DNA of 64,000 nt. It comes from Spirosoma linguale DSM 74 (GTDB lineage: Bacteria; Bacteroidota; Bacteroidia; Cytophagales; Spirosomataceae). The translations under genes and the position numbers were made by a program. Below the pieces are notes generated by a model, which had not been told where the DNA came from, searched no databases, and saw only the letters and a list, made by a program, of their open reading frames with translations. This document shows positions 4,592 to 63,196 of the stretch, one piece after another. The DNA lies in NCBI GenBank assembly GCA_000024525.1, contig CP001769.1, forward strand, positions 6,109,001-6,173,000, in the 5' to 3' direction. The first letter of the stretch is position 1. Each line of letters opens with the position of its first letter.

Positions 4592-4680
4592 AGTGTAGTC
4601 TTTGATGATAGACTGTATAAACCATTTCCTGCCAGTTCTGTTAGTAAAAGGAATTTCCCCTAACACCTGCGGGACGTCAA

Positions 4681-48132: not shown

Positions 48133-48760
48133 TCGCTTTGCAAAAAAGAATGTTACACCAATAAATAAATCCTTAACAACGCACAAGCATGTCTAAATAG
48201 GGAGCAACATATGGAGCTATTTTACTTATTTATCTCCCCTTTATGTTACGGCGATAATTAGTTTTTCAAGCACAGGTAGATTCTGTCTTCGTCAAAAAAA
48301 CTAATCCTAAACTAGGTAGAGCTCCGTTTGTCCTCTTGTTTAAGAAGGCGTTAGAAATTTGTCGATTTACTTATCATTTACCAGAATCTATTCTTATGCA
48401 GAAACAGCAGAATTATATATACCAAATCTAAAATACATCTAGTAAAGATTTACACTTATAAAGGCTTGGGTCTTTAGAAGTATTCATGCTCCTTTTCATA
48501 TACAGATAATTTTATTTTTAAAATATAAATTACCAATCACCTAATTGTTGGTAAGTAGATAGTATAAAACAGCGCTAATAGCAAACACTCTACACACGCC
48601 TTGGCCATAAGGATCGGCTTCATTTCTTGTTTTAAATAAATACTTTATAGCTATTTTTTTATTTATAGGAATCCACACTAGAGTCAAATAGTGACCTATA
48701 GTGACTTTTCTTACCACCATTAGTCAAAGAGGTGACATGTACTTGAATCACTGAATTATT
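48133..48760. other. AT-rich divergent intergenic region GH9 / TetR
   Basis: Over 600 bases with no plausible gene, markedly AT-rich from 48190 to 48670 with homopolymer runs. It must contain the promoters of both divergent genes and probably the TetR operator near its right end. I see no RNA structure that I can name. Confidence 0.6.
48676..48705. promoter_or_regulatory. Possible TetR operator
   Basis: CACTA (48676-48680) and TAGTG (48689-48693) form an 18-base interrupted palindrome, and ATAGTGAC occurs twice at 48688-48695 and 48698-48705, 10 bases apart. Operators of this size and phasing just upstream of a TetR gene are common. Weak evidence only. Confidence 0.3.
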
Positions 48761-49453
48761 ATGCAGACCCCCATCATGGATAAGGATGAAAAAATTAGAC
48801 GCAATCGCGCGAAGACCACACAGCGCATTGTCGAAGCTCTGGAAGAGGTAATAGCCGAACGCGGTATCGAGGGCGTAGGTGTAAACCGCGTTGCCGAAAA
48901 GGCTAATGTCAGCAAGGTACTGATATATAGATATTTCGGCGGCATGGAAGGCTTGTTTGAATATTATGTAAAGATGGGGAAACTGTTTCCAATATTTACG
49001 CCCTCTGTTTTAGATCAGATACGTCCATTGCACGAATCGGATATTGCCCGAATCTGGTATCGGCAGGTCATCCAGACATACCGGTATTTCCGTACGTTCA
49101 AAGCCGCTCGTGAAATCCTCAAGGCAAGTGTTATTGAGAACGACCCGATTGCCGAAACAACGGCCCGGGCGCAGGATGATGAAATGACGCGGCTCGTTAG
49201 CCAGCTTTCCTTTGTAAAGGGAGCCGACACGCAGGCGATTTCAGCTATTATTCTCGGTGCTATGACCTACCTGACCATCATGGCACAAAACGACCGGACT
49301 ATGGTGAGTATCGACCTCCGGAGTGAAGAGGGCTGGAACCGCATTGAGAACGCAGTAAAAGCTATCTACATTTCACTAAATAAGATGGCGATCCATACTA
49401 AAGACGTTGAACTTGAACTCCAGTCTTCCCATTTTCCAGTAGCCCAATGGTAG
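48761..49453 (+). CDS. TetR-family transcriptional regulator
   Basis: 230 aa. Residues 12-60 are the TetR helix-turn-helix: TTQRIVEALEEVIAERGIEGVGVNRVAEKANVSKVLIYRYFGGMEGLFEYYV, with the recognition helix VSKVLIYRYF. The rest is an all-helical ligand-binding/dimerisation domain of unknown ligand. It may regulate itself, the divergent GH9 endoglucanase, or distant genes. The gene begins ATGCAGACC at 48761, but an internal Met at residue 6 is also possible. Confidence 0.9.
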   Translation: MQTPIMDKDEKIRRNRAKTTQRIVEALEEVIAERGIEGVGVNRVAEKANVSKVLIYRYFGGMEGLFEYYVKMGKLFPIFTPSVLDQIRPLHESDIARIWYRQVIQTYRYFRTFKAAREILKASVIENDPIAETTARAQDDEMTRLVSQLSFVKGADTQAISAIILGAMTYLTIMAQNDRTMVSIDLRSEEGWNRIENAVKAIYISLNKMAIHTKDVELELQSSHFPVAQW

Positions 49454-49645
49454 TAAAAGATAAAGCGGTTTACAGGAGAGGTTGCGCCGTTATCACGAAC
49501 ACCGGGCTTCCGGCGAATAACGGGGCTCATAATACGCCAAGTCCCTTTTAACAGCTGCTTCATCGCTCATAATGGTGAGCGGACACGTCGGCAGATTTAC
49601 GTCGGTCTGCTTTATTTGTACCCCTCCATAAGTTACTACACGCAC

Positions 49646-49718
49646 TTACTAGCTCCTACCATGCAAAAACCTCTGCTAACAGTGTCGGCAGAGGTTTTTG
49701 CATGGTAGGAGCTAGTAA
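49646..49718. repeat. 31-base perfect inverted repeat between convergent genes
   Basis: Arms at 49646-49676 and 49688-49718 are perfect 31-base reverse complements around an 11-base loop; the core is CATGCAAAAACCTCTGC. It ends 2 bases from the stop of the haloperoxidase gene. It may be a strong two-way terminator, but the stem is much longer than usual. Confidence 0.85.
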
Positions 49719-49720
49719 AT

Positions 49721-51076
49721 TTATCGTTGTGCCACGGCTGACTTACGGGTATGTATTTTTTCAAGTACCCATTTGCCCACCTTTTCGCCCTCAACCTGGC
49801 CATTCTCTAGTGCTGAGCGGTAGTGAATACCGCCGTACAACCGGCTGATCGAGGCTTCGTCGGCAGCGGCCCGGATGGATGGGAACGACCGCACACCATG
49901 CCCGTACGGAAACTCGGTCGAGTCCGTGAAGGCCACGTTATCGCCCATGAGGTTTGTCAGTACGGTGGCCGCAGCGGTCGAGATCACGCTGTGTCCGCTT
50001 GGATACTCCGGAAACGGGGGCGTTTGCAGGAAAGGCGTCCATTTAGGGTCGATTAACTTGTTGATAACCGTTTCGGGCCGGACGGTTTTGCTACGGTATT
50101 TTTCATCCCAGCACGAAATGAAGCCGTCGCTCAGAGCAAAAGACGTAAGCGCGTAGGCTTCAACCGTTTGCATCATGTTCAGCTTTTTCTTGCGGGAAAT
50201 GGTCTGTGCAATAGCCAGCCAGTGTCCGCCGGGTGTCATTTTCTTGCTGGCGTACATCACGTGCCCGGCCACATTCATAACAAAGGCGTTATCGTCCCAG
50301 AAATAGGCAATATCCTGTTTCTGCTTATCGACGTTCTTACCAGTCTGGTAAACCTCGTCGAGCTCTTTTTCGTAAGGGCTCCCCTTAACGAGGCTGTAGG
50401 GATGCGGACGGGGCGGCATAAACTGATTGCAGGTGTCCATAGCCCAGCAGCGTAGTTTGTTCCACTGCGGTTCGGCAGCATCCATGTAGGCGGGCGGGGT
50501 AGGCACCCACGACCCTTCTTCGTTCGTCACGGTATGTTTAAACCCACGGGTTTGCTTGTAGCTGTCCTTAGCCGCATAGTCCAGAATATGCTTGGCAACC
50601 GCTTCGCCATAGGCCATTGAGCGATCATACACCTCATCGGGCACACCGTCTTTCTTGTACTGCTCGTAAAAAGGCTTTTCGAAGGTATCGTAAAAGTCAA
50701 CCGAGAAGGTCAGCGCACGGGCAACGGTCAGAAAAGCACGGGTACTGGCCAGCGGGAAACAATACTCTTTACCCGGTTCCGGCTTAGGCCCGCTCTGGAA
50801 CCGCTTCAGCTTACCGCCCAGCGACTCATATTGAGCATCGAACGGTACTAATGCCTCGTAGCCGGCCAGATTGGCGTAGGAATAAATGCGACTGGCAACG
50901 GGGGGTGAGAAAATGTCGTGAATGACAACTTCCGTCAGTTTGTTCAGCGCCGAATTGTAATATTCGGGATTGGCAGCCTTTGCGTTATACTCAGCTGGGG
51001 ATGCAGGCTTCTGGCAAGCGGTCAACCCAACCAGCACGACTGCCAGCAGATAGCCAAAGCGAAGCGAAACGTTCAT
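49721..51076 (-). CDS. Vanadium-dependent haloperoxidase-like PAP2 lipoprotein
   Basis: 451 aa from the Met at 51076. A lipoprotein signal (LAVVLVGLTACQ) anchors it to a membrane facing the periplasm or surface. It has the vanadate/phosphate pocket of the PAP2-haloperoxidase superfamily: K-x6-RP in DEKYRSKTVRP, PSGH in YPSGHSVIST, and SRxxxGxH in SRLYGGIH, with the His that binds vanadium. The acidic residue normally closing the third motif (HxxxD) is Ala here (HYRSA), so enzyme type is uncertain. It is last in a minus-strand series SusC-SusD-CRTAC1-CRTAC1. A 100-base gap with -7 boxes precedes it. Confidence 0.85.
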   Translation of the reverse strand: MNVSLRFGYLLAVVLVGLTACQKPASPAEYNAKAANPEYYNSALNKLTEVVIHDIFSPPVASRIYSYANLAGYEALVPFDAQYESLGGKLKRFQSGPKPEPGKEYCFPLASTRAFLTVARALTFSVDFYDTFEKPFYEQYKKDGVPDEVYDRSMAYGEAVAKHILDYAAKDSYKQTRGFKHTVTNEEGSWVPTPPAYMDAAEPQWNKLRCWAMDTCNQFMPPRPHPYSLVKGSPYEKELDEVYQTGKNVDKQKQDIAYFWDDNAFVMNVAGHVMYASKKMTPGGHWLAIAQTISRKKKLNMMQTVEAYALTSFALSDGFISCWDEKYRSKTVRPETVINKLIDPKWTPFLQTPPFPEYPSGHSVISTAAATVLTNLMGDNVAFTDSTEFPYGHGVRSFPSIRAAADEASISRLYGGIHYRSALENGQVEGEKVGKWVLEKIHTRKSAVAQR

Positions 51077-51111
51077 ACGATTAAATAGCAAGTTAGAGTA
51101 ATAAGCAACCG

Positions 51112-51142
51112 CAAAATTAATTGCCTAGAATTTACAAAATTA
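51112..51142 (-). promoter_or_regulatory. Possible promoter of the haloperoxidase-like gene
   Basis: On the minus strand TAATTTTG occurs twice (51112-51119 and 51135-51142), both fitting TAnnTTTG, 36 and 59 bases before the start at 51076. The -33 element is unclear. Confidence 0.4.
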
Positions 51143-51178
51143 ACGGAAAATATCAGACAAAAAGGAGATTAATATCAA

Positions 51179-54100
51179 CTACAGCGATTTGAATACCTGC
51201 ATACCAGCGTCGTTCCGCGTTACAACGATGCGAACGCCCTGAGCCGAACGTACGGGGCGAATATCCCGTATCTCGCCATTGAGCAGGAAACCGGAATCTA
51301 CGGGCGACAGCGCACTAAAGTTTCCTTTGCCATCATTCCGCAGTACCAGCCCGTAACTGGCATCGTATCGACCCTGATAGGTGCTGACCCCGTAAAAGTT
51401 ACCTCCCCCCAGTATATCCAGATCCCCATCCCGGTCGAAGTCAATGGCCTGCAGGGCAAATAACTTCGATACCTGCGCCATCATGGGCAGTTCATGCACG
51501 ACAAACTTACCGTCGTTATTCTCCAGGTAAACCGAAGCAAACTCGATAACGGTAAGTTCATCCGCTCCTTTCAGTTCTTCATCCGTCAAAACATCATCGA
51601 GCGGCTTCCCTGCGAAGGAGACATAGTCGGTAAAGCGTTTGTTAATGATGCTCGGCATTTGCTTGCCCAGTTCGTCTTTAAAGGCGAGTGGGTACCAGTC
51701 ATCTCCGCGATTGTACGAAATGATCTGCTCAATACTCTGGTTATTGTCTACATCCTTTACCAGCATCCGCAGCTGCGAATCGGGTGTTTTGCGGAACTTG
51801 GTGTTTGTGCCGATGTTTCCAGCTACCAGATCAATATCACCATCCCGGTCGAAATCGGCGGCAATAAGGCGCTGAAAAAAGCCGTTGAGCGGGGTATCGG
51901 TAATGGATTTCACTTCCTGGAATTTCCCTTTATCATTGGCGAAAATGCGAATCGGCATCCAGTCGCCCGACACGATCAGGTCCTGGTCTTTATCACCGTC
52001 ATAATCGGCCCATACGGCGTCGGTAACCATACCAACCGTTCGGAGGCCCGGTGCCAGCTTATCAATCTGATCTGTAAACGTACCCTTGCCATTGTTGACC
52101 AGCAAATACGAATTAGGCGATTTACCGTAGCCGAAGCCCACTACACGCCCACCCACAAACAAGTCGAGGTCGCCGTCGTTATCGACGTCGAAAGGACGAA
52201 CGCAGCTTTTGTTATCGTACATGGCAGGCAGCGCATTCGGCGAACGCGTAAAGCTTCCTTTGCCGTCGTTCAGGTAGAGCCGGTCGAACTGCTCCGGCAT
52301 CTTGTTATAAAACTCGTTACCGCCCGAAACGACGTATAAATCCAGGTCCTTGTCGCCATCGGCATCGAAGAAAACCGCGTCGACGTCTTCATAAACAGAG
52401 TCTTTCTTAAAGTCGGCCTGTACCGATGGTTTGAACGTTCCGTTCGCTTGCTGCACGAGTAAGCTACCAGCCTGCCACTTGGCCCCACCGGCATACATAT
52501 CGTCCAGTCCATCGCCGTTTACATCCCCAACGGCCAGATGCGGCCCCTCGGTCGACACTTTGAACGGCATCAGCGACTCCCGCACGAAATCGAAATACTC
52601 TTTATTTTCCTTGTGTTGGTACGGAATTGAGTCGGCGGTCGATACATCGGCGAACAAAGGCTGCATGGGCGGATTTGTATAAACGAACCCGGCACCATCG
52701 AGTTTGGCATCCGCCTGTTTCAGCATTATCGACTGATTGGTTTTGACGTTGGTACGCACCTCCATCTGCTGATTCGGCCAGATAACGATCAGCGAGTCAA
52801 TGCTGGCCCGCTTGCCCAACCCAAACAGTAACTCCGGTGCCACTGACGACTCGAAGCCCCGCGTTGGCATCAGTTGCTGCACCAGCAGACTGTCTTTGCC
52901 GTATTTCAAAATCACCTTTGCCCCTACCCCAAATGTGTTGGGCGAATCGCCTTTGAGCTTAACGGTCAGGTGCGTATTTTCGGGAAACAACGTCGTGGCT
53001 TCATTGCGGTACAAACTGGCCGGGTCGTTGATGTTGTTGGTAATGAGATCCAGATCGCCGTCATTGTCGAGGTCGGCGTAGGCGGAACCGTTCGAGTAAT
53101 TCGGCAGTTCGAAACCCCAGGCCGACGACTTATCCTCAAACCGCAACGAGGGTGTTCCCCGGTACAGGTAATTATGCACTTTGCCTTCGGGCATGAGTTT
53201 AGTAGCCCGCTCATCGAGCGATTTCGATGTTTCCATTGCATACCGCAATGAGTCGTCAGCGGCAAACTTCACGTACTCCAGGTTATTAGGCCGCCGGACA
53301 ATGCCGTTCGTGATGAACAGGTCTTTGATCCCATCGTTGTCGTAGTCGGCCAGCAACGGCGACCAACTCCAGTCGGTTGCGGCTACCCCCGACATCGCGC
53401 CGATGTCCATGAATTTTTTACCCGAAAGACTCAGTTGCAGACAGTTCCGGCTGTACTGGTTCATGTAGCCGTACGCCAGTTTATAGGTGTAAATATCCAG
53501 CGGATCTTCGCCCAGCGACGATTTCTCAACTGTTTCATCTTCGGGATACATGTCGAGCGTGACTACATCGGCAAAACCGTCATTATTCACATCGCCAATG
53601 TCGTTTCCCATAGAGAATCGGCTGGTGTGCTGAAAGGCTTTTTTTACGCTTTCGGTAAAGGTCCCGTCGTGGTTGTTGACGTAGTAATAATCGTCTTCGT
53701 GGAAATCGTTGGAGACGTAAATATCTTCCCACCCATCGTTATTCAGGTCGGCGACCGAAACTCCCAGCCCGTAGCCCATTGCCGCGCCGAAGATACCCGC
53801 CCGCTCACTTACGTTCTGAAACCGGGCGATTTTACCCGCAGGGGCTTGCCCGGATTTGGTTATGCTTTGGTTCTCGTACAGGTAATCGCCCGATTCGTTA
53901 TTGCGTAAGTTTCGGGCAGAAACGCGGTCGTAACTGCGGGAGGTATGGATAGCGTGATTGAGCAGGTAACAATCCAGATCGCCATCATGGTCGTAATCGA
54001 AGAAGGCGGCCTGGGTCGAAAAACCCGTAAAGTCCAGTCCGTAATCAGCGGCTTTTTCGGTGAAGGTATTGTCGCCGTTATTAATGTACAATTCATTGGA

Positions 54101-54520
54101 GCCCTCCTGCCCCCGGAAATTGCCCACCGCGCAGACGTAAATATCGAGTAGACCGTCGCCGTTGACATCGGCCATTGTGGAGCCTGTTTGCCAGTCTGCA
54201 AATCCTTCGACGCCCGCTTTGGCAGTGATGTCTTCAAACTTAAAATCTCCCTTGTTGAGGTACAGCTTATTCTTTCCCTGATTGGATACGAAGTACAGAT
54301 CGGTGAGGCCATCGTTGTTTATATCGCCCGCCGAAACGCCCCCACCATTGTAGAAATAGAGGTAATCTAAAATGTTGAGCTTTTCGGTCGGCACCAGCTT
54401 ATTAACAAACCCAACGCCCGTTTGGGTCGAATCGAGCGACTCGAAAAGGGGTTTTTCCGATTTGAAGGAGTTACAGCCCGTCAACGCCAATGCGCCGATA
54501 AAAAGAAGAATGCGGTTCAT
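51179..54520 (-). CDS. CRTAC1/ASPIC-type FG-GAP repeat lipoprotein 2
   Basis: 1113 aa with a lipobox (GALALTGCNSF) at the start. It is built from many FG-GAP/VCBS repeats whose calcium loops read DxNxDGxxD or DxDxDGDLD (DINNDGLTDLY, DVNGDGLLDIY, DYDHDGDLDCY, DLNNDGWEDIY), so a beta-propeller at the cell surface is expected. An ASPIC/UnbV domain lies near residues 525-610 (FGVGAKVILKYGKDSLLVQQLMPTRGFESSVAPELLFGLG with IVIWPNQQMEV). It is about 45% shared in layout with the paralogue upstream (inference from motif order, not computed). Its role in the SusCD locus is unknown; glycan or protein binding is likely. Confidence 0.9.
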   Translation of the reverse strand: MNRILLFIGALALTGCNSFKSEKPLFESLDSTQTGVGFVNKLVPTEKLNILDYLYFYNGGGVSAGDINNDGLTDLYFVSNQGKNKLYLNKGDFKFEDITAKAGVEGFADWQTGSTMADVNGDGLLDIYVCAVGNFRGQEGSNELYINNGDNTFTEKAADYGLDFTGFSTQAAFFDYDHDGDLDCYLLNHAIHTSRSYDRVSARNLRNNESGDYLYENQSITKSGQAPAGKIARFQNVSERAGIFGAAMGYGLGVSVADLNNDGWEDIYVSNDFHEDDYYYVNNHDGTFTESVKKAFQHTSRFSMGNDIGDVNNDGFADVVTLDMYPEDETVEKSSLGEDPLDIYTYKLAYGYMNQYSRNCLQLSLSGKKFMDIGAMSGVAATDWSWSPLLADYDNDGIKDLFITNGIVRRPNNLEYVKFAADDSLRYAMETSKSLDERATKLMPEGKVHNYLYRGTPSLRFEDKSSAWGFELPNYSNGSAYADLDNDGDLDLITNNINDPASLYRNEATTLFPENTHLTVKLKGDSPNTFGVGAKVILKYGKDSLLVQQLMPTRGFESSVAPELLFGLGKRASIDSLIVIWPNQQMEVRTNVKTNQSIMLKQADAKLDGAGFVYTNPPMQPLFADVSTADSIPYQHKENKEYFDFVRESLMPFKVSTEGPHLAVGDVNGDGLDDMYAGGAKWQAGSLLVQQANGTFKPSVQADFKKDSVYEDVDAVFFDADGDKDLDLYVVSGGNEFYNKMPEQFDRLYLNDGKGSFTRSPNALPAMYDNKSCVRPFDVDNDGDLDLFVGGRVVGFGYGKSPNSYLLVNNGKGTFTDQIDKLAPGLRTVGMVTDAVWADYDGDKDQDLIVSGDWMPIRIFANDKGKFQEVKSITDTPLNGFFQRLIAADFDRDGDIDLVAGNIGTNTKFRKTPDSQLRMLVKDVDNNQSIEQIISYNRGDDWYPLAFKDELGKQMPSIINKRFTDYVSFAGKPLDDVLTDEELKGADELTVIEFASVYLENNDGKFVVHELPMMAQVSKLFALQAIDFDRDGDLDILGGGNFYGVSTYQGRYDASYGLVLRNDGKGNFSALSPVDSGFLLNGEIRDIRPVRSAQGVRIVVTRNDAGMQVFKSL

Positions 54521-54528
54521 AGTATTAG

Positions 54529-54740
54529 GAGTGAGGAGCGAGGAGTGAGGAGGGCTGACCGCACCGCAGCCACGGACGGTCGGCGGACCGGCATGTTATG
54601 CCGCCAAATGGCCCCTCGCTCCTCACCCCTTCATATTCATTTATTAATAATTAAAATAGCTACCAGAGCGGTGAAGAGGAGATAACCGGATGGGTTTTAA
54701 CCGCCGGATGGCTCCTCACTACTCGCTCCTAACTTCTCAC
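54529..54740. repeat. Low-complexity repeat region between the two CRTAC1 genes
   Basis: GAGGAGCGAGGAGTGAGGAG on the left (54532-54553) faces CTCGCTCCTCACCCCT (54614-54629) and a second right copy GGCTCCTCACTACTCGCTCCTAAC (54710-54733), with CCGCC(A/G)AATGG-like units before each. The sequence supplies the stop codon of the upstream gene. A near copy is found inside the coding region at 57478-57520. Confidence 0.7.
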
Positions 54741-57700
54741 TTCTTTAAAGAAAACACTTGTGCCTTGTCGTTATTTTTGGCGAGAATAATTTGCCCCTGT
54801 TTTAGTTGGGCGATGTGCCGAACCTGCCCACGGACGAAAAAGCCGGATACCGCCGGATTGACGGATTCGTACCGGATGGTGCCGTTGGCCGCCTTTCCCT
54901 TGTTGTGCAGGGTAACGCCATAACTCGCGTCGTAGCGCCCGATTTCGGGAAGTACATCCAGAAAATTACCGGTCAGCAGCAGGTCCGTGTGTCCATCGTG
55001 ATCATAATCGGTGAAGAGGGCACCACATACGGGCGAAAACTGAGCCTCGGCCGGTAAAGGCTGCAACGTTAGTTTTCCCTTTCCATCGTTAAGCAGAATG
55101 ACAGTTTCGCCCATGAATGCCTGTTTGACAACCGCCTGCTTCCGCTGATCCTCATCCAGCACATCGGTGATTTTCTTGCCCGCGTAGTCGACGTATTTCA
55201 CGTATTTCTTTTTGATCGTCGGCATGGCTTTCTGCAACTCCTGCTTCAGCACCATTGGGTATAACTCACCCGTTTCGTCGGCGCAGTTGATGATTTGCTC
55301 AACGGTGCCGTTATGGTCGAAATCGCCGGTGTAAAGTTCAGCGGGGATTGTCTGATTGGCTTTTATGCGTGAATTCGTGCCCAGATTGCCGATCACCAGA
55401 TCCAGATCGCCATCGCCGTCGGCGTCACCGGCGGTTACGCAGTTCCACCAGCCATTCGTTTTCAGGACATCACCCTGCGCGTTTTTGATGGTGAATTCGG
55501 GGTTTTGACTCAGTTTCCCCCGCTTGTTTTCGAATACCCGCACGGGTCCCCAATCGCTTACCACCACCAGCTCGGGATATGAATCGCCGTTGAGGTCGGC
55601 CCAGGTGGCATCGGTTACCATGCCCAGCTGCTCTACTTCGGCCAGCGAGCGTTTGGTGTAGTTCTTGAAATTCCCGGTGCCATCGTTGGAAAGTAAATAA
55701 CTGGCCGGGTCCCGACCGTACTGGCCGGGAATCATTCGGGAGCCGATGAATAGGTCAATGTCGCCATCCCGGTCGAAATCACCGGCCGCCACGCAGGAGC
55801 CGTTGGCTTTCAAATTGGGCAGCGCAGTTTCCGAGCGGGTGAAATTTCCCTTGCCATCGTTGAGGTAAAAACGATCCAGCAGTTCGTCGGTTTCTTCGCC
55901 AAATTCGTTGCTTCCCGATACCACGTACAGGTCCAGGTCTTTATCGCCATCAGCGTCGAACAAAACAGCGTCGACCGCTTCATAAGTCGTATCCTGCCGC
56001 ATAACAGCGGGCGTTTTATCGACAAATCGACCGGCGGTATGCTGCACGAATAAGTGGCCCGCGTGGCCGCTGGCTCCACCAAAGAATACATCGTCAAGCC
56101 CGTCGCCGTTCACGTCGCCGGTTGCCAGTGCCGGGCCCTGGGTCGACAGTTGTTGCTTCAGTAAAGCATCCCGGTTATAGTCGACAAAGGCGCTTTCCTG
56201 ATGCAGATAGCTCAGTCCAGAAGTCCCCGTATTGTCCTGAAAAGCGGGCGTTTGCGTAGTTGGATCAGGTTTCCAGAGCTGGTTGGCATCCTGCTGCCGA
56301 AGCGTCAGCATCTGGTTGGCTTTCGGCTTGCGTACCGTCTGCATTTTATCGTCCGGCCAGATAACCACCAGCGAATCAATGGTAGGGCTGGCTCCCAATC
56401 CAAAAAGCAGGTTCAGGTCGACCGACGACTCAAAGCCCCGGTTCGGCATCTGCTGAAGCAACTGCGTCTGGCCGGGCTGGTGTAAAAACACGCGGGCACC
56501 AATGGCATTTCGGTTCATCCCGGTGCCTTCCAGCTTTATCTTCAGGTAATTAGTCTTATTCTTCTCGACGGATTGGTTCTGGTAAATGGCTACCGGCGCA
56601 TTCATGTTGTTGACAATCAAATCCAGATCGCCATCATTGTCCAGATCACCATACGCAGCTCCGTTGGAAAAATCGGGCTCCGACAGTCCCCAATCGAACG
56701 CTTTATTGGTAAACTGTAAATTTCCATCGTTGTGAAAAGCGTAATTCGGCACGCCTTCCGACGGAGCTTTGTCCAGAAACTCTTTAAAATTAAAGGCCCG
56801 TTGCCGGGCAATCTGCGCCATGTTTTCGCGGTCGGCCAGGAAGTTCACGAAATCCTGATCGGTTACGTCTTTAGCAATGCCGTTGGCTACGAATATATCT
56901 TTCTGGCCGTCGTTGTCCATGTCGAACAGCAGCGCCCCCCAACTCCAGTCGGTGGCCTGCACCCCGGCAAAGCGGGCGATGTCGCTGAAAACGGGCAAGC
57001 CACCATTTCCCGGCTGATTACCCTGATTCAGGTGCAGCATATTCTGCATGAACTGGTAATGAAAATCCCGGCCCACTTTAATCTGCTCCAGGTCGTGGCT
57101 TTCGTAGCTGGAGGTTCGTTTTAGCCGCCGGTCGTTGCCGGGTAGCATATCGGTGATGAAAATATCGAGACGGCCGTCGTTGTTGACATCGGCAACATCG
57201 GCCCCCATGGACGACAGACTCGTATGCGGCATCGACTCCTTGATCGACTCCTTAAACGTGCCATCATGGTTGTTGATATAGAGATAGTCACGCTCGTAGA
57301 AGTCGTTGGAAATATAAATATCGAGCCAGTTATCATCGTTCACATCACCTATAGTAATCCCTAGCCCAAAGCCAATCAAACTCCCATATATCCCAGCCTC
57401 CTCCGACACATCCACAAACACCGGCCCCGAAGTCTTCCCTTTTTTCTCCCCACTCCCTTTTTTTCTACCACCACCGGACGGCTCCTCACTTCTCGCTCCT
57501 CGCTCCTCGCTCCTCAAAGAATACCCCTGGCTCCTATTTTCAAACAACTTATGCCCCCCCAGCGAATCGCGTTGCGACCGCAGGTTAGCGTATTGCAGTT
57601 TCCCAACGGGCATGAAGCTGTTGTTGAGTAGGTACATATCCAGATCGCCGTCGCGGTCGTAGTCGAAGAAAGCGGCATGGGTGGAATAACCCCGGTCGTC

Positions 57701-58243
57701 GAGACCATATTCGGCTGCCCGTTCGGTAAACGTGGGGATACCGCTGGCGTCGTTGCCGTTGTTGATGAAGAGTTCATTGGCCCGGTCGTCGCCGTCGCGG
57801 TTACCGGCATTGCAAATGTAGATATCCAGCCGTCCATCGCCGTTTACATCGGCAAAGGTGGCGCCCGTACTCCAGGCCCGTTTACCGGCCACACCCGCTT
57901 TGGCGGTAACATCTTCAAACTGAATTCCAGGCTGTTCCGACCCGGCTTTACTCGTCGCTGTCCGGTTCAGGTACAGTTTATTGTCGCCCATATTGGCTAT
58001 CAGCAACACGTCTGACAGGCCGTCGTTGTTTACATCGCCGATAGCGACTCCTCCGCCATTGTAGAAATTGCGATAATTGAAGACGTTAAAGTCTTTGTCG
58101 TCGGTAATGGTATTACTAAAATTAACGTGGGTTTCTTCGGCGGGTAGTTTTCGGAACAGCGGGTCTGCCGGTTGTTGCTGTTCTGAACGGCAACCGGCAA
58201 TCAGGCCTATTGCCAGTACTAGTAAACTGATGCGCATTAGCAC
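54737..58243 (-). CDS. CRTAC1/ASPIC-type FG-GAP repeat lipoprotein 1
   Basis: 1168 aa with a lipobox (IGLIAGCRSE). Same design as its neighbour: many calcium-loop FG-GAP repeats (DVNNDGLSD, DVNGDGRLDIY, DYDRDGDLDMY, DVNDDNWLDIY, DMDNDGQKDIF) and an ASPIC/UnbV domain around residues 570-650 (NAIGARVFLHQPGQTQLLQQMPNRGFESSVDLNLLFGLG). Residues about 242-272 (RSEERGARSEEP, then GGGRKKGSGEKKGK) are out of character: charged, low complexity, and encoded by a copy of the intergenic GAGGAGCGA repeat. The paralogue lacks that stretch. It follows SusD, after a hairpin, on the same strand. Confidence 0.9.
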   Translation of the reverse strand: MLMRISLLVLAIGLIAGCRSEQQQPADPLFRKLPAEETHVNFSNTITDDKDFNVFNYRNFYNGGGVAIGDVNNDGLSDVLLIANMGDNKLYLNRTATSKAGSEQPGIQFEDVTAKAGVAGKRAWSTGATFADVNGDGRLDIYICNAGNRDGDDRANELFINNGNDASGIPTFTERAAEYGLDDRGYSTHAAFFDYDRDGDLDMYLLNNSFMPVGKLQYANLRSQRDSLGGHKLFENRSQGYSLRSEERGARSEEPSGGGRKKGSGEKKGKTSGPVFVDVSEEAGIYGSLIGFGLGITIGDVNDDNWLDIYISNDFYERDYLYINNHDGTFKESIKESMPHTSLSSMGADVADVNNDGRLDIFITDMLPGNDRRLKRTSSYESHDLEQIKVGRDFHYQFMQNMLHLNQGNQPGNGGLPVFSDIARFAGVQATDWSWGALLFDMDNDGQKDIFVANGIAKDVTDQDFVNFLADRENMAQIARQRAFNFKEFLDKAPSEGVPNYAFHNDGNLQFTNKAFDWGLSEPDFSNGAAYGDLDNDGDLDLIVNNMNAPVAIYQNQSVEKNKTNYLKIKLEGTGMNRNAIGARVFLHQPGQTQLLQQMPNRGFESSVDLNLLFGLGASPTIDSLVVIWPDDKMQTVRKPKANQMLTLRQQDANQLWKPDPTTQTPAFQDNTGTSGLSYLHQESAFVDYNRDALLKQQLSTQGPALATGDVNGDGLDDVFFGGASGHAGHLFVQHTAGRFVDKTPAVMRQDTTYEAVDAVLFDADGDKDLDLYVVSGSNEFGEETDELLDRFYLNDGKGNFTRSETALPNLKANGSCVAAGDFDRDGDIDLFIGSRMIPGQYGRDPASYLLSNDGTGNFKNYTKRSLAEVEQLGMVTDATWADLNGDSYPELVVVSDWGPVRVFENKRGKLSQNPEFTIKNAQGDVLKTNGWWNCVTAGDADGDGDLDLVIGNLGTNSRIKANQTIPAELYTGDFDHNGTVEQIINCADETGELYPMVLKQELQKAMPTIKKKYVKYVDYAGKKITDVLDEDQRKQAVVKQAFMGETVILLNDGKGKLTLQPLPAEAQFSPVCGALFTDYDHDGHTDLLLTGNFLDVLPEIGRYDASYGVTLHNKGKAANGTIRYESVNPAVSGFFVRGQVRHIAQLKQGQIILAKNNDKAQVFSLKK
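57428..57520. repeat. Intergenic-type repeat inside the FG-GAP gene
   Basis: CACCGGACGGCTCCTCACTTCTCGCTCCT is matched almost base for base by the intergenic copy at 54702-54730 (shown here in two pieces: CACCGGACGGCTCC and TCACTTCTCGCTCCT). The insertion keeps the reading frame. The following GGGAGTGGGGAGAAAA stretch (minus strand) is also low complexity. Confidence 0.75.
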
Positions 58244-58391
58244 AGGTACGTGAATTATATGGGAGTTATCGTTAAGACAAGTTATCGTTCAGAAGGGTTA
58301 TTTTAGGAAATTAGGACTACAAAGATAAGTAATTACAGAAGTTCTTATACAGCCAGAATACGATTAATAGGCTTTTAATCAGTCAGAAATG

Positions 58392-58423
58392 AAACGAGCA
58401 AGCCCACATGAGCCTGCTCGTTT
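58392..58423 (-). terminator. Hairpin after SusD
   Basis: On the minus strand AAACGAGCAGGC, a short loop, GCTTGCTCGTTT then CATTT: a 12-base stem with one or two mismatches, 20 bases after the SusD stop. Likely a partial terminator that lowers expression of the downstream lipoproteins relative to SusCD. Confidence 0.6.
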
Positions 58424-58442
58424 TCATCCCTTATAAGGAAAA

Positions 58443-59924
58443 TTAATACCCGGGATTCTGCTTCAGGTTCGGGTTCAGCGACAACTGATCCTTTGGAATC
58501 GGGAACAGCTGGCGATATGCCTGTGAAGCGGGTTTGAAGCGCCATGCTTTAGTGAACTGACCAAAGCGGATCAGATCCTGACGGCGGTGTTGCTCCCACG
58601 CCAGCTCACGACCACGCTCAGCCAGGATTTCGTCCAGTGTCAGTGTAGCACTGGTATAATCCGGCATACCGGCCCGTTTGCGAACAATGTTGAAATCGGG
58701 TAATGCAGCGCCCACATTGCCTAAGCGGAAGTTAGCTTCGCCACGCATCATATACACGTCAGCTAAACGATAAACAACGAAATCGTTATCCTGATCGGTA
58801 AATGAGTTGTTCTTCTGGATTTCGTATTTCTGGCTGCGGGCACCGGCCAAACGACCATTGGCACCAGCATCGAAGGTAAACGATTCGATTTCGGGACGGA
58901 ATACCATGTCCAGGGCATCATCCTTCAAGGGTGTACCGTCGGCTTTGTACTGCTGACCAACGATCCACTGCTTTTTCCGGATATCCTTGTCATCGAACGA
59001 ATTGTAGAATTCAGTTACCGTTGCCCAGCCGTTCCAGGGAGCTGTACCAATGTTGTAGGTCAACTGGTTCAGGTAGTGGAGCGTTTTCATTTGTACATTC
59101 ATCCCACCCCGTTTTGATTTATCAAAAGGAGTTGCCAGAATCGTTTCGGGCGAATTCTGATTCTGTGTAGAGAAGTTACTGAGATAGTCACCGGAAATCT
59201 GGAATTTACCCGACGAAATAATGTTCGTGCAGCGCGTGATGGCATCGGCCCAACGAGGAGTGCCTGTATACACCTGTGCATTCAGGTACATTTTAGCCAG
59301 AATCATATCGGCCACGTACTTGTTCATGCGGCTATAATAGGCACCACCCGATACATCGCTCAGGTTCGGGTACACCTCCAGCAGTTCTTTCTCTACCCAG
59401 GCAAATACCTCGGCCCGAGTGCTTTGCTTTGAAGCACCGCTCCCTGTTCCATCAGCAATAATAACATTACCGAACAGATCCATAGCCTGATAGTGGAAGA
59501 AAGCCCGAAGAGCCCGTAATTCTGCCTTCGTCTTAACATCCGAAATAGTACCCAGTTGCTGATTGATTTTGGTGATGTTGTTGTAGCACCAGGTCCAGGG
59601 GCCGTTGAACTGCCCATTATCCGTAATGGGATCCCAAGTGTGCTGGTACAGGCGTTTCCAGTTGTCACCGTCTTTCCAGTCACCTCCCCGGGTTGGCACG
59701 ATCTGCTCATCCGTGGTTGTGTTCAGGTTCGACATGTTACCGTAATAGTCACCCAACCCGTTGTAGAGAGGACCAATCAGAGCTGCCTGCTGTGCGGCTG
59801 TACTACCGAAGGTTCCACTAGTAGGAATAACGTCGTAGGTTGTTTCGGTCAGATCCGTACAGGCCTGGCCTGCCAGCATCAGCGCCGAGCAGCCCAGAAG
59901 CAATTTTATATTTATTTGTTTCAT
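58443..59924 (-). CDS. SusD/RagB-family outer membrane nutrient-binding lipoprotein
   Basis: 493 aa with lipobox (LMLAGQACTDL). SusD proteins cover the SusC pore at the cell surface and bind the ligand. The N-terminal Sus-like region (about residues 25-210) contains helical TPR units (AELRALRAFFHYQAMDLFGNV), and the C-terminal RagB part has DFVVYRLADVYMMRGEANFRLGN and the conserved ILAERGRELAWEQHRRQDLIRFGQF. The ligand cannot be read from sequence. It follows SusC by 128 bases. Confidence 0.95.
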   Translation of the reverse strand: MKQINIKLLLGCSALMLAGQACTDLTETTYDVIPTSGTFGSTAAQQAALIGPLYNGLGDYYGNMSNLNTTTDEQIVPTRGGDWKDGDNWKRLYQHTWDPITDNGQFNGPWTWCYNNITKINQQLGTISDVKTKAELRALRAFFHYQAMDLFGNVIIADGTGSGASKQSTRAEVFAWVEKELLEVYPNLSDVSGGAYYSRMNKYVADMILAKMYLNAQVYTGTPRWADAITRCTNIISSGKFQISGDYLSNFSTQNQNSPETILATPFDKSKRGGMNVQMKTLHYLNQLTYNIGTAPWNGWATVTEFYNSFDDKDIRKKQWIVGQQYKADGTPLKDDALDMVFRPEIESFTFDAGANGRLAGARSQKYEIQKNNSFTDQDNDFVVYRLADVYMMRGEANFRLGNVGAALPDFNIVRKRAGMPDYTSATLTLDEILAERGRELAWEQHRRQDLIRFGQFTKAWRFKPASQAYRQLFPIPKDQLSLNPNLKQNPGY

Positions 59925-60052
59925 AAAAGTTTTTGATAGTTAACTAGTTACAGCGTCAGTATATGAACAGGGACTAACGATGAGGCTACGCAAACAGAGT
60001 TAATAAACTGGCTATTTTTCTTTCATAACAGCCAGTCTATTAACAGATTAAT

Positions 60053-63000
60053 CTAGAACGTCAGGTTAAGGCCTAACTGGAATGTGCGCGTTTTGGGATA
60101 AATACCACTGGCATCAATGCCAACCGAGTTGGGTGCCTGGGTGAGGCTGTTAGGCAGATCACCTTTAACCTGCAATTCCGGATCGATACCTTTGTATTTG
60201 GTAATGATGAACAGGTTATTACCACCTACATAAACGCGGGCATTCGAGATGTACTTGCTGGCTGGCAGTGGGATACTGTAACCAATTTGCCAGTTATCGA
60301 ACCGAACAAATGAGCCTTTTTCGAGCCAGTTGGTCGACAGAACGTTCACACCATAGTTTTTGGGCAGTGTCGTTACGTCTTTCAGCATGTTGGTTTCCAG
60401 AATTGAGCCAGGAATCATTAGATTCGAGCGCAGGTTGTTCAGAATGCTGTTGCCAAAGGTTCCCCGCAGTTGGAAGTAGAAATCAAAACCTTTGTAACGG
60501 AACGTGTTGATGAACGAAGCGTTCAGGAACGGCTGTGGGTTACCCTGCTTCAACGGACTACCCGCAGCAAAAGCAGCGGCTGCATCAGCTTTCGATACGT
60601 CTGTTACCGGCGTATCGCCCGAAGCTGCTTTCAGCAGCGGCTGGCCATCTGCCGAGTAAGCACCGGTGAAGGTGGGTACGTTGTTGAACTGACCCAGCGA
60701 CTGACCCGGCCAGATGAACGAAGCAAATACGTCCGACAAGCCACGGCCACCGAAGGCATTGAAACGAACGGTACCTGAATCAAACTCATCGTTTTTCAGG
60801 TTAACAATCGTGTTTTTGTTGTAAGCTCCCACCACACGGGCATTCCAGGAGAAAGACCCTTTCTGGATTACGTCGCCACCAAACGATAATTCAACTCCGC
60901 TGTTCCGCATCGAACCTACGTTGGCCAGAATGATGTTGGTAAAGTATTTTTTACCATCGGCCGGTACTGAGTAGGGGTACAGCATGTCTTTGGTCAGCTT
61001 GTTGTAATACTCAAGCGTACCCGAGAAGCGCCCACCCAGCAGTTGGAAATCCAGCCCTACGTTCGACTGAGTCAGTACTTCCCATTTCAGGTTCGGATTA
61101 GCATTCTGGGTAATACCATAGCCTGGCAGGAAGTCACTGATCGTTCCATCGTAATAGCTACCACTCTGACCATACAATTGAATCGAGTTATAGGCAGCAA
61201 TACCTTCCGAATTACCCGTTTGTCCCCAACCGGCCCGCAATTTCAGGTAATTAAGAGAATTACCCTTTGGGAAGAACGACTCGTTGCTGATTGTCCAGCC
61301 TGCACCAATGGATGGGAAGATACCCCATTTATTGTTGACCCCGAACTTAGAACTGCCATCCCGGCGGATCGTGGCGGTTACATTGTACTTGTCGTTCAGG
61401 TTAACACTGGCCCGTCCGAAGAACGAGATGAGTTTCGACTGGTTACGGTAGGAGCCAACATAACCACTTCCTGGCAGAATGATTGTACCTGATCCTAAAT
61501 TAAGGTTATTGTAGTTAATTTCACTAGTTAAGTAACCAGTGTTGGACGCGTTGAAGCCGTCGTTGTCGAACTGCTGATACGAATAACCAGCTAATAAGGA
61601 ATAGTTACTATTTTGAGTACCAAAGCCTTTTACATAATTAAGCGTCGTTTCCAGTAGTCGGCTGTTTGATTCGGAAAAGCCCCTCCCAGCACGGCCATTG
61701 TTAGCAGAAAACGCCTTAATAATAGGATTGGTGTAAAAGCTTGTTGTCGAATTGTCACGCTGAATTTGCCCGCTGACGCCTAAGGTCAGGCCATCCAGAA
61801 TTTCGTATCGAAGGTTAGCGCCCGCCTGTAAATAACGCTGCACAGCCGTATTCACTGAATTATTGAGCATAGCAACTGGGTTGAACAGGTCGAAGCTCCC
61901 TCCTACTTCGTAGTAAGAACCGTCCGCATTACGAATAGGCAGTGTTGGCAGAAAGGTAGTGGCACGATTCAACAAGGAACCTACACTTGGTGCACCCTGG
62001 CTCCCATTGTCAGGGAAATCCTTATTTGTCTCAGAATAAGAAAGGTTATATTGGATATTCAGACGGTTATCCAACGCTTTCTGATCGAGGTTAATACGCC
62101 CTGTGATACGATCGAAACCCGTTTTCTTAACAATACCCTGGTTGTTGATGTAATTTAACGAACCACGGTAGCTAAACGTTGGCGAACCACCCGCAATAGC
62201 CAAATCGTGGTTATTCACAATGGCGGTACGAGTGATTTCTTTAATCCAGTCGGTATTGTAATTACCCGCTGGGAAACGCTGTAAATCGCCCAGCGCCGAT
62301 GAGCCTTTGATGGACGTTACGGCATCGCGATAGCCCGGGCCGTCAAGCAGATCAAGACGTCTTGAAATAACGGCGGCACTAACATAGTTGTTAAAGGTTA
62401 CGGTCGTTTTGCCCGCTTTACCACGCTTGGTGGTTACAAGAATAACACCGTTAGCTGCGCGTGAGCCATAAATAGCAGAAGCCGATGCATCTTTCAATAC
62501 ATCCATCGATTCGATGTCGGAAGGGGAAATGGTACTAATGGGCACACCAATCATACCATCAACCACATACAGTGGGTCAGAACCACCCGCCAGCGAGGTG
62601 TACCCGCGCAAACGGACGGTTGGTTGTTGATTGGGGTCACCAGATGGCGAAGTAATTACCAGACCGGCTACTTTACCCTGAATGGCCTGCAGTGGGTTGG
62701 GGTTTACGCCCGCGTTGAAATCTTTAGCCGATACCTGAACAACCGAGCCGGTCAGGTCTTTCCGTTTTGCGGTACCATAACCCACAACGACTACTTCGTC
62801 GAGTGCTTTGGTATCGTCGGCTAACTTTACATCTACCGTTGACCGGTTTCCTACAACAACCTCCTGCGAGGTATAACCAATAAAGCTCAGAACAAGCGTT
62901 GCATTGTCTGGCACGTTGGCCAGCGAATACTTGCCATCAGCGTCGGTGTTGGTGCCACGCTGCGTACCTTTCAACTGCACACTCACACCGGGCAACGCTG

Positions 63001-63196
63001 TACCCGCCGGATCGGTCACTTTACCCGTAACAGTACGGCCTTGTGCCCATGCTGCCGAATTGCTCAGCAGTAGCACCATTACCAGCATCGACAGAAAGCT
63101 AACCAACGCTTTCCGTTTGAATGACTGGGGTTGGCGTTCACCAACCTGACCTACGTAGCCACTAAAGTGGTTCATTTTGTAGGAGTTGTTCATCAT
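60053..63196 (-). CDS. SusC/RagA-family TonB-dependent outer membrane transporter
   Basis: 1047 aa. After a signal peptide (about residues 28-52, ending SAAWAQ) comes a carboxypeptidase-regulatory-like domain (RTVTGKVTDPAGTALPGVSVQLKG) and the SusC-specific plug opening KALDEVVVVGYGTAKRKDLTGSV (the TonB-box-like DEVVVVGYG). A plug domain (to about residue 260; GYTSLAGGSDPLYVVDGM, SASAIYGSRAANGVILVTTKRG) and a 22-strand barrel ending in the aromatic terminal strand (KTRTFQLGLNLTF) follow. It imports a glycan, peptide or other large ligand with SusD. It heads the minus-strand locus. Confidence 0.96.
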   Translation of the reverse strand: MMNNSYKMNHFSGYVGQVGERQPQSFKRKALVSFLSMLVMVLLLSNSAAWAQGRTVTGKVTDPAGTALPGVSVQLKGTQRGTNTDADGKYSLANVPDNATLVLSFIGYTSQEVVVGNRSTVDVKLADDTKALDEVVVVGYGTAKRKDLTGSVVQVSAKDFNAGVNPNPLQAIQGKVAGLVITSPSGDPNQQPTVRLRGYTSLAGGSDPLYVVDGMIGVPISTISPSDIESMDVLKDASASAIYGSRAANGVILVTTKRGKAGKTTVTFNNYVSAAVISRRLDLLDGPGYRDAVTSIKGSSALGDLQRFPAGNYNTDWIKEITRTAIVNNHDLAIAGGSPTFSYRGSLNYINNQGIVKKTGFDRITGRINLDQKALDNRLNIQYNLSYSETNKDFPDNGSQGAPSVGSLLNRATTFLPTLPIRNADGSYYEVGGSFDLFNPVAMLNNSVNTAVQRYLQAGANLRYEILDGLTLGVSGQIQRDNSTTSFYTNPIIKAFSANNGRAGRGFSESNSRLLETTLNYVKGFGTQNSNYSLLAGYSYQQFDNDGFNASNTGYLTSEINYNNLNLGSGTIILPGSGYVGSYRNQSKLISFFGRASVNLNDKYNVTATIRRDGSSKFGVNNKWGIFPSIGAGWTISNESFFPKGNSLNYLKLRAGWGQTGNSEGIAAYNSIQLYGQSGSYYDGTISDFLPGYGITQNANPNLKWEVLTQSNVGLDFQLLGGRFSGTLEYYNKLTKDMLYPYSVPADGKKYFTNIILANVGSMRNSGVELSFGGDVIQKGSFSWNARVVGAYNKNTIVNLKNDEFDSGTVRFNAFGGRGLSDVFASFIWPGQSLGQFNNVPTFTGAYSADGQPLLKAASGDTPVTDVSKADAAAAFAAGSPLKQGNPQPFLNASFINTFRYKGFDFYFQLRGTFGNSILNNLRSNLMIPGSILETNMLKDVTTLPKNYGVNVLSTNWLEKGSFVRFDNWQIGYSIPLPASKYISNARVYVGGNNLFIITKYKGIDPELQVKGDLPNSLTQAPNSVGIDASGIYPKTRTFQLGLNLTF

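What the first reader, a model, noticed from the sequence alone, without database searches (positions are those of the whole stretch)
49721..63196. SusCD locus with two CRTAC1 propeller lipoproteins and a haloperoxidase-type lipoprotein instead of glycosidases
SusC, SusD, two giant FG-GAP/ASPIC lipoproteins and a PAP2/vanadium-haloperoxidase-like lipoprotein follow one another on one strand. No CAZyme, sulphatase or peptidase is included. This suggests a surface system for an unusual ligand (for example a phosphorylated, halogenated or phenolic polymer) or for metal/vanadate handling.
Basis: partly seen in the sequence, partly recalled or inferred. Interest (0 to 1): 0.7.

Follow-up and report, generated by a model that had tools for sequence, protein, structure and literature searches.

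The report
Sugar-uptake operon with iodoperoxidase-like lipoprotein
A Spirosoma-like bacterium carries an operon that joins an outer-membrane sugar importer to two large propeller proteins and an iodide-oxidising type of enzyme; the same grouping recurs in related bacteria, often with sugar-cutting genes, of which this strain keeps only a broken scrap.

Summary
The five genes are real and in the stated order. The last is a close relative of the crystallised Zobellia vanadium haloperoxidase (PDB 4cit, E 1.5e-123) and keeps the vanadate-site residues. The arrangement is not local: of 296 Bacteroidota genomes, 62 of 64 with such an enzyme also have ASPIC (CRTAC1-type) genes, and in 45 of 78 loci of the main enzyme clade a CRTAC1 gene lies directly upstream, against 14 of 931 other ORFs there. 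A gene 99% identical to 4cit follows three CRTAC1 genes. 'Instead of glycosidases' is wrong as a rule: part of the related loci carry GH65 kojibiose hydrolase, trehalase or other sugar genes, and the window keeps a 43-residue relic of the hydrolase 87 bases past the last gene. Best reading: an alpha-glucoside utilisation locus whose surface machinery includes a haloperoxidase-type lipoprotein. Homology and gene order are shown; ligand, activity and the reason for the coupling are inferred. No paper in my search listings described the link.

The parts
60053..63196 (-). SusC/RagA TonB-linked outer-membrane importer, 1047 aa
   Evidence: TIGR04056 758 bits over cut-off 368, TIGR04057 signature, Plug and CarboxypepD_reg-like domains
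58443..59924 (-). SusD/RagB surface lipoprotein, 493 aa
   Evidence: PF07980 116 bits, PF14322; lipobox ending at Cys22 read from the translation
54737..58243 (-). CRTAC1-type lipoprotein a (FG-GAP propeller repeats + ASPIC/UnbV), 1168 aa, 12 DxDxDGxxD-type motifs
   Evidence: PF13517 243 bits, PF07593 74 bits; motif count
51179..54520 (-). CRTAC1-type lipoprotein b, 1113 aa, 13 DxDxDGxxD-type motifs; the copy directly upstream of the haloperoxidase
   Evidence: PF13517 260 bits, PF07593 70 bits; PDB 9etn cartilage acidic protein 1 E 2.2e-13; motif count; Cys16 invariant in 31 sequences
49721..51091 (-). vanadium iodoperoxidase-type lipoprotein, 456 aa from a TTG (an ATG five codons on may be the true start)
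   Evidence: PDB 4cit E 1.5e-123; 46% identical residues in the aligned columns, vanadate-site residues kept
49646..49718 (-). hairpin, 36-nt arms 94% complementary, right after the last stop codon; likely transcription terminator
   Evidence: core found at this one place in the own genome; hairpins, mostly of other sequence, at the same place in six relatives, read by eye
49505..49633 (-). relic of a GH65 kojibiose hydrolase gene, 43 residues, 74% identical to residues 552-594 of the intact frame in Spirosoma arboris (L009)
   Evidence: tblastn E 1.1e-16; separate profile hit NF053734 E 4.4e-9 at window 49508-49636

Best explanation
It is a polysaccharide-utilisation-type operon, in the Spirosoma group most likely for a small alpha-glucoside (kojibiose- or trehalose-like), whose surface machinery includes a haloperoxidase-type enzyme. 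SusC/SusD capture and import the ligand. The two CRTAC1-type lipoproteins are probably calcium-loaded propellers on the cell surface that bind the ligand or dock partners; the copy next to the haloperoxidase belongs to position-specific groups, so the two probably work as a pair. The last lipoprotein has an intact vanadate-peroxidase site and most likely oxidises a halide (iodide, by its closest characterised relative) with hydrogen peroxide while the sugar is taken up. A kojibiose hydrolase gene stands just downstream in related species and was lost here. Shown: gene order, homology, active-site residues, recurrence, the relic. Inferred: the ligand, surface location, enzyme activity, the pairing, and why halide oxidation is coupled to sugar uptake.
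For: Homology to 4cit; Lys, both Arg and both His of the site in 169 of 169 clade members, Gly in 98%, Ser in 96%, all in the window protein. Genome co-occurrence 62 of 64. CRTAC1 directly upstream in 45 of 78 clade-A loci from 10 family codes, versus 3 of 30 for the other haloperoxidases and 14 of 931 other ORFs. 17 of 40 measurable CRTAC1-haloperoxidase gaps (of 73 pairs) are 30 bases or less, 8 of them overlaps. CRTAC1 copies directly upstream of the enzyme need 14 label changes on the tree against 66 in shuffles. Kojibiose hydrolase is over cut-off in 24 of 296 genomes; by the coordinates, 10 of these 24 genes lie within 3 kb and 13 within 15 kb of a clade-A haloperoxidase, in differing orders. 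Among the 79 loci, 14 hold a full-length hydrolase frame, and broken pieces lie in L006, L007, L008, L010 and the window. 4 of 5 SusD proteins of hydrolase loci without haloperoxidase group with 3 SusD of haloperoxidase loci (support 95).
Against: 16 of 78 clade-A enzymes have no CRTAC1 gene within 8 kb; nine loci re-searched by tblastn (L007, L019, L022, L023, L028, L029, L031, L033, L048) show none, and L007 (Spirosoma fluviale, enzyme 94% identical) has no SusCD match in 21 kb either, so the enzyme can stand alone. A hairpin separates it from the hydrolase gene in Spirosoma, so they may not share a transcript. Only 26 of 170 clade-A loci had the hydrolase within 4 kb and 5 more a trehalase within 10 kb. 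Of 11 hydrolase regions away from a haloperoxidase, 5 show neither SusCD nor CRTAC1. Sugar genes differ between lineages, and one lineage has a phenylacetate-catabolism gene instead, so one fixed ligand is unlikely. No expression or activity data.
Confidence: 0.48

Rival explanations
1. Defence or halide module: the CRTAC1-haloperoxidase pair makes hypohalous acid (or removes hydrogen peroxide, or gathers iodide) on plant, algal or biofilm surfaces, and sits with sugar genes only because both are switched on in the same niche.
For: The nearest solved relative is a haloperoxidase described as an iodoperoxidase (title's reference list); Zobellia vIPO3 is up on Ascophyllum (passage in PMC9296495); lone copies exist.
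Against: Repeated association with SusCD, and with kojibiose hydrolase in different orders, is more than a shared niche would be expected to give.
Confidence: 0.2
2. The last protein works as a phosphatase on a phosphorylated sugar or glycolipid ligand; PAP2 phosphatases and vanadium haloperoxidases share the site.
For: PF01569 PAP2 is the Pfam match; an own-genome SusC-SusD-CRTAC1 locus has a glycerophosphodiesterase downstream (L089). 58 of 169 clade members have an Asp three residues after the last site histidine.
Against: The nearest solved relative by far is a haloperoxidase, and the clade keeps its site residues. The Asp four residues after the last histidine, which I recall as typical of PAP2 phosphatases, is missing in 4cit and the window protein (read; the rule is recalled).
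Confidence: 0.15
3. The haloperoxidase chemically modifies or breaks a recalcitrant, perhaps aromatic, polymer so that SusCD can import the pieces.
For: Position in a SusCD operon that in this genome has no working glycosidase. A PaaA_PaaC phenylacetate-catabolism protein is in the run of 5 loci (L144, L147, L148, L152, L160) and a Phenol_MetA_deg-type porin in 4 (L111, L126, L138, L159).
Against: Relatives nearer to the window carry kojibiose hydrolase, and the window once did; the PaaA_PaaC loci have no SusCD in the run.
Confidence: 0.12

Closest known systems
Vanadium iodoperoxidase of Zobellia galactanivorans (PDB 4cit, 4usz)
   Different: The G182 locus has three CRTAC1 genes, and its nearest SusCD pair lies further upstream beyond GH2 and DNA-polymerase genes (L118, L193); here two CRTAC1 genes with SusCD adjacent
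Dextran utilisation locus FjDexUL of Flavobacterium johnsoniae, with kojibiose hydrolase FjGH65A (PMC10316084, passages read)
   Same: SusC-SusD pair with a GH65 kojibiose hydrolase in one locus, as in relatives of the window
   Different: FjDexUL has a SusE/F homologue, GH66, GH31 and GH97; haloperoxidase, FG-GAP, VCBS and CRTAC1 occur nowhere in its main text; the window has only a relic of the hydrolase
Kojibiose hydrolase of Mucilaginibacter mallensis (PMC8537180, passages read)
   Same: Same activity name as the NCBI family (NF053734) that fits the gene in related loci
   Different: The words gene cluster, genomic context and SusC do not occur in that paper; no working gene in this genome
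Arenibacter sp. C-21 iodine uptake (PMC5064120, whole text read)
   Same: Marine member of the same phylum with at least five PAP2 proteins homologous to 4usz; [quoted passage not shown]
   Different: Gene neighbourhoods of its haloperoxidases are not in that paper and I did not obtain them
Human CRTAC1, cartilage acidic protein 1 (PDB 9etn)
   Same: Sequence match to lipoprotein b, E 2.2e-13 over residues 58-217
   Different: Chain of 586 aa from an animal; match covers one stretch only; no function transferable

Membership tests
Polysaccharide utilisation locus (PUL) | adjacent SusC and SusD genes | tested here: met
   TIGR04056 and PF07980 in adjacent genes
Polysaccharide utilisation locus (PUL) | carbohydrate-active enzyme in the locus | tested here: not met
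   none in the five window proteins; relic of a GH65 gene beside them; GH65, GH37 or GH116/MGH1-like genes in part of the related loci
Polysaccharide utilisation locus (PUL) | linked sugar-sensing regulator | tested here: inconclusive
   only a TetR gene on the other strand at 48761-49453 was scanned; a gene with a GyrI-like domain (PF06445) is in the run of 20 related loci, not here
Vanadium-dependent haloperoxidase, bacterial iodoperoxidase type | vanadate-site residues Lys, Arg, Ser-Gly-His, Arg, His (recalled as K324, R331, S358, G359, H360, R410, H416 of 4cit) | tested here: met
   all present in the window protein; 96-100% in 169 clade members
Vanadium-dependent haloperoxidase, bacterial iodoperoxidase type | vanadate-dependent halide oxidation with hydrogen peroxide | not testable with these tools
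   needs purified protein
CRTAC1-type (FG-GAP + ASPIC/UnbV) protein | FG-GAP propeller repeats and one ASPIC/UnbV domain | tested here: met
   PF13517 with 9 and 8 stretches and PF07593 above cut-off in both
Kojibiose hydrolase locus | working GH65 kojibiose hydrolase gene (NF053734 over 800 bits) | tested here: not met
   no match over the cut-off in the whole own genome; best 150 bits elsewhere; relic 37 bits beside the operon
Dextran utilisation locus of the FjDexUL kind | GH66 and GH31 dextranase genes in the locus | tested here: not met
   not among the five window proteins

The most novel reading that the evidence does not exclude
A glucose-fuelled halide-oxidising machine on the cell surface: the locus frees glucose from alpha-glucosides (kojibiose hydrolase, trehalase), a calcium-dependent surface protein (possibly the CRTAC1 propellers themselves) oxidises it with oxygen to hydrogen peroxide, and the neighbouring vanadium enzyme uses that peroxide to oxidise iodide for uptake or attack. 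It would explain why Arenibacter iodine uptake needs glucose, oxygen and calcium, and would give bacterial CRTAC1-type proteins a function.
Probability: 0.1. Interest if true: 0.8.

Novelty: new variant of a known kind. Interest (0 to 1): 0.58.

Why it matters
What bacterial vanadium iodoperoxidases and CRTAC1-type propeller lipoproteins are for is open, as far as the papers I could search show. A link between the two that spans many families of the phylum, with sugar-uptake genes beside them, gives a direct test: induce with a defined sugar, delete one gene, measure growth and iodide oxidation. It would move this enzyme from halogen chemistry towards sugar uptake.

Tried and rejected
Considered and rejected: (1) that the order is a one-genome accident: it recurs. 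(2) That the locus never had a glycosidase: relic found. (3) A repeat element at the deletion site: the hairpin core is at one place only in the genome and hairpins stand at the same place in six relatives, so a terminator is likelier. (4) Vanadate or metal handling: thinly supported, not excluded. Among the neighbour clusters scanned the one metal-related hit was a below-cut-off HmuY match in a cluster of 5 loci; a separate haloperoxidase pair of this genome does sit with a TonB receptor (L092). Clusters beyond those scanned were not annotated.

Led nowhere: structure prediction (switched off), so no fold search was run. A simple lipobox pattern found only 80 of 172 clade-A enzymes and 115 of 198 CRTAC1 proteins, perhaps because stop-to-stop frames hide the start; I do not use it as evidence for or against.

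Limits: gene maps use stop-to-stop ORFs. The profiles for SusC, SusD, CRTAC1, haloperoxidase and neighbours were built from the fetched loci themselves. Counts are not corrected for kinship. One search scored at most 5 candidates a genome and at most 3. All 76 strong non-own rows (E 3.3e-88 or better) were fetched, but only 24 further regions, chosen by me, around its 56 weaker rows. The 13 further Flavobacteriaceae regions were picked by hand; they are not in the counts but are in those. CRTAC1 genes away from a haloperoxidase are few in the tree (27 of 198).
Full report
What is there. The window lies at 6,109,001-6,173,000 of contig C1 of an 8.49 Mb genome. Its haloperoxidase is 99% identical to that of a Spirosoma MAG (L006). 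The genome has 9 ASPIC/UnbV matches, 55 SusD matches and 5 haloperoxidase-like matches, so none of these families is a rarity here, and other SusC-SusD-CRTAC1 runs exist without a haloperoxidase (L085, L087, L089, L090). The CRTAC1 gene of L087 ends about 850 bases upstream of the window's SusC on the same strand; in the tree it groups with the middle CRTAC1 of three-CRTAC1 loci of other Spirosoma.

The last enzyme. It matches PDB 4cit, vanadium-dependent haloperoxidase, at E 1.5e-123 over residues 24-450, and one other solved chain weakly. In an alignment with 169 members of its clade (A) and 38 of other haloperoxidases (B), the lysine, two arginines and two histidines of the vanadate site are in all 169, the glycine in 98% and the serine in 96%; the window protein has every one. 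The residue numbers of 4cit are recalled; they fit the conserved positions with a constant offset of 8.

Not a one-genome order. A scan of named genomes gave 79 loci, mostly Spirosoma, Dyadobacter and kin. In 13 of them SusC, SusD, CRTAC1, CRTAC1 and the enzyme can be seen in that order although the flank is only 10 kb. In 28 loci, all but one or two titled Dyadobacter, the enzyme is divergent from a run of SusC, an unmatched SusD-sized gap, CRTAC1 and a second, cut-off haloperoxidase gene. In 296 genomes drawn evenly from the phylum, 64 have a haloperoxidase match at 1e-10, 140 an ASPIC match at 1e-6, 62 both, 2 the enzyme alone (odds ratio 61, p 6e-22, not corrected for kinship). I fetched the neighbourhood of all 76 strong matches outside the own genome and 24 further regions around the 56 weaker rows. 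Of 78 clade-A loci (own two included) 45 have a CRTAC1 gene directly upstream on the same strand, 7 one gene further, 8 elsewhere within 8 kb, 16 none, 2 end at a contig edge; the 45 come from 10 family codes. For the other haloperoxidases it is 3 directly upstream, 5 within 8 kb, 21 none and 1 edge, of 30. For the other ORFs in the same regions it is 14 of 931. A start could be set for 40 of 73 CRTAC1-enzyme pairs: 8 overlap, 17 in all have gaps of 30 bases or less, and many others sit near 100.

The characterised enzyme is in the same setting. In G182 three CRTAC1 genes precede it on the same strand (L118, L193). The nearest SusCD pair upstream is separated by GH2, DNA-polymerase-III-alpha-like and IMS-polymerase genes (L193), so linkage to SusCD is loose there.

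The missing glycosidase. Clustering the neighbours of clade A showed a gene of about 690 aa in the run of 24 loci. It is kojibiose hydrolase: NF053734 at 900-1221 bits in 8 of 8 representatives and 1109 (cut-off 800). In other Spirosoma it lies downstream of the haloperoxidase, often after a 230-250 aa gene without a Pfam match. Among the 79 named loci 14 hold a full-length frame; L027 is broken near its end and L018 is cut by the contig end. The own genome has no match over the cut-off, but one short match sits exactly there; by tblastn it is 43 residues at 74% identity, E 1.1e-16, window 49505-49633. Broken pieces also lie in L006, L007, L008 and L010. In the phylum sample 24 of 296 genomes have the gene over the cut-off; by the coordinates, 10 of the 24 genes lie within 3 kb of a clade-A haloperoxidase and 13 within 15 kb. 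The order differs: between CRTAC1 and enzyme (L095, L097, L098, L157), downstream (Spirosoma, L121, L131), upstream with CRTAC1 genes further off or absent (L126, L136, L138, L159), or about 12 kb away before SusC (L217-L219). Repeated association in new orders argues for a functional link. Of 11 hydrolase regions without a haloperoxidase nearby (L220-L230), 4 have SusCD and a trehalase, 1 SusCD with a GH13 gene, 1 CRTAC1 genes on both sides, and 5 neither SusCD nor CRTAC1. Four of the five SusD proteins of such loci group with three SusD of haloperoxidase loci, nearest L128 and L130 (support 95, fast method).

Other genes beside the enzyme. Trehalase, MFS transporters and a PfkB kinase follow it in L128, L130 and L137, and trehalase in L120 and L123. 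A GH116/MGH1-like glycosidase lies between CRTAC1 and enzyme in L105, L110 and L112 (one representative scanned). A FGGY kinase nearest to xylulokinase (below that cut-off), xylose isomerase (over its cut-off) and a sodium:solute symporter stand before it in L201 and L210, and in L204 with the kinase cut (one locus scanned). Against a pure sugar reading, a PaaA_PaaC phenylacetate-catabolism protein is in the run of 5 loci of one lineage (L144, L147, L148, L152, L160) and a Phenol_MetA_deg-type porin in 4. The ligand therefore probably varies; for the Spirosoma group an alpha-glucoside is favoured.

Against this reading. A hairpin follows the haloperoxidase stop codon in the window and in the six relatives looked at, so the hydrolase may be a separate transcript. 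Lone enzymes are common (16 of 78; nine loci without CRTAC1 by tblastn). In the combined set only 26 of 170 loci had the hydrolase within 4 kb on the same strand and 5 more a trehalase within 10 kb. The CRTAC1 tree was made with a fast method, has long branches that meet, and holds few CRTAC1 genes away from a haloperoxidase.

How it may work. SusCD import is standard for the family (recalled). Both CRTAC1 proteins have 12-13 motifs of the calcium-binding FG-GAP kind (calcium binding is recalled, not tested), and the lipid-anchor cysteine of b is invariant in 31 sequences. CRTAC1 copies directly upstream of the enzyme need 14 label changes on the tree against 66 in shuffles, as expected for a fixed partner, though near-copies also raise such figures. 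The enzyme most likely oxidises iodide or another halide with peroxide. Why this is tied to sugar uptake is not shown. One lead: Arenibacter C-21 needs glucose, oxygen and calcium to take up iodine, a membrane-bound glucose oxidase plus haloperoxidase was proposed, and its genome has at least five homologues of 4usz (PMC5064120, whole text).

What is in print. Searches for haloperoxidase, iodoperoxidase, CRTAC1, ASPIC, FG-GAP, SusC/SusD, kojibiose and trehalase combinations listed, among the rows shown, no paper that by title or abstract start reports this linkage; the word haloperoxidase does not occur in the main texts of PMC8626586 and PMC10316084. The 2014 Zobellia enzyme paper and the 2007 Arenibacter paper are not held, so prior mention there cannot be excluded.

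Noticed in passing
L092 (own genome C1:5666000-5685900): Two haloperoxidases outside clade A (523 and 547 aa) each follow a gene of about 310 aa, of which one was scanned and has no Pfam match, next to a TonB-dependent receptor, a Phenol_MetA_deg-type protein and DUF3179.
   Followed up: partly
window 2984-4696, minus strand: A trehalase (GH37) gene lies 45 kb from the operon in the same window; trehalase genes stand inside some related haloperoxidase loci.
   Followed up: no
L007 (Spirosoma fluviale): The enzyme is 94% identical but CRTAC1 and SusCD matches are absent from the 21 kb around it, while a hydrolase relic remains: the module seems to have fallen apart.
   Followed up: partly
L027 (Spirosoma telluris): CRTAC1, haloperoxidase and hydrolase frames are all broken in this record, which may be sequencing error or decay.
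   Followed up: no
L089 (own genome C1:6876000-6895900): Another SusC-SusD-CRTAC1 run is followed by a glycerophosphodiester phosphodiesterase and a GH3-family (PF03321) protein.
   Followed up: no
L144, L147, L148, L152, L160: In one lineage the enzyme is followed by a small protein (below-cut-off HmuY match in L147) and/or a PaaA_PaaC protein, with no SusCD in the run.
   Followed up: no
window 44732-45904 and 46369-48186: A glutathionylspermidine-synthase-like gene and a GH9 gene with a CelD_N domain lie downstream of the operon beyond a TetR gene.
   Followed up: no
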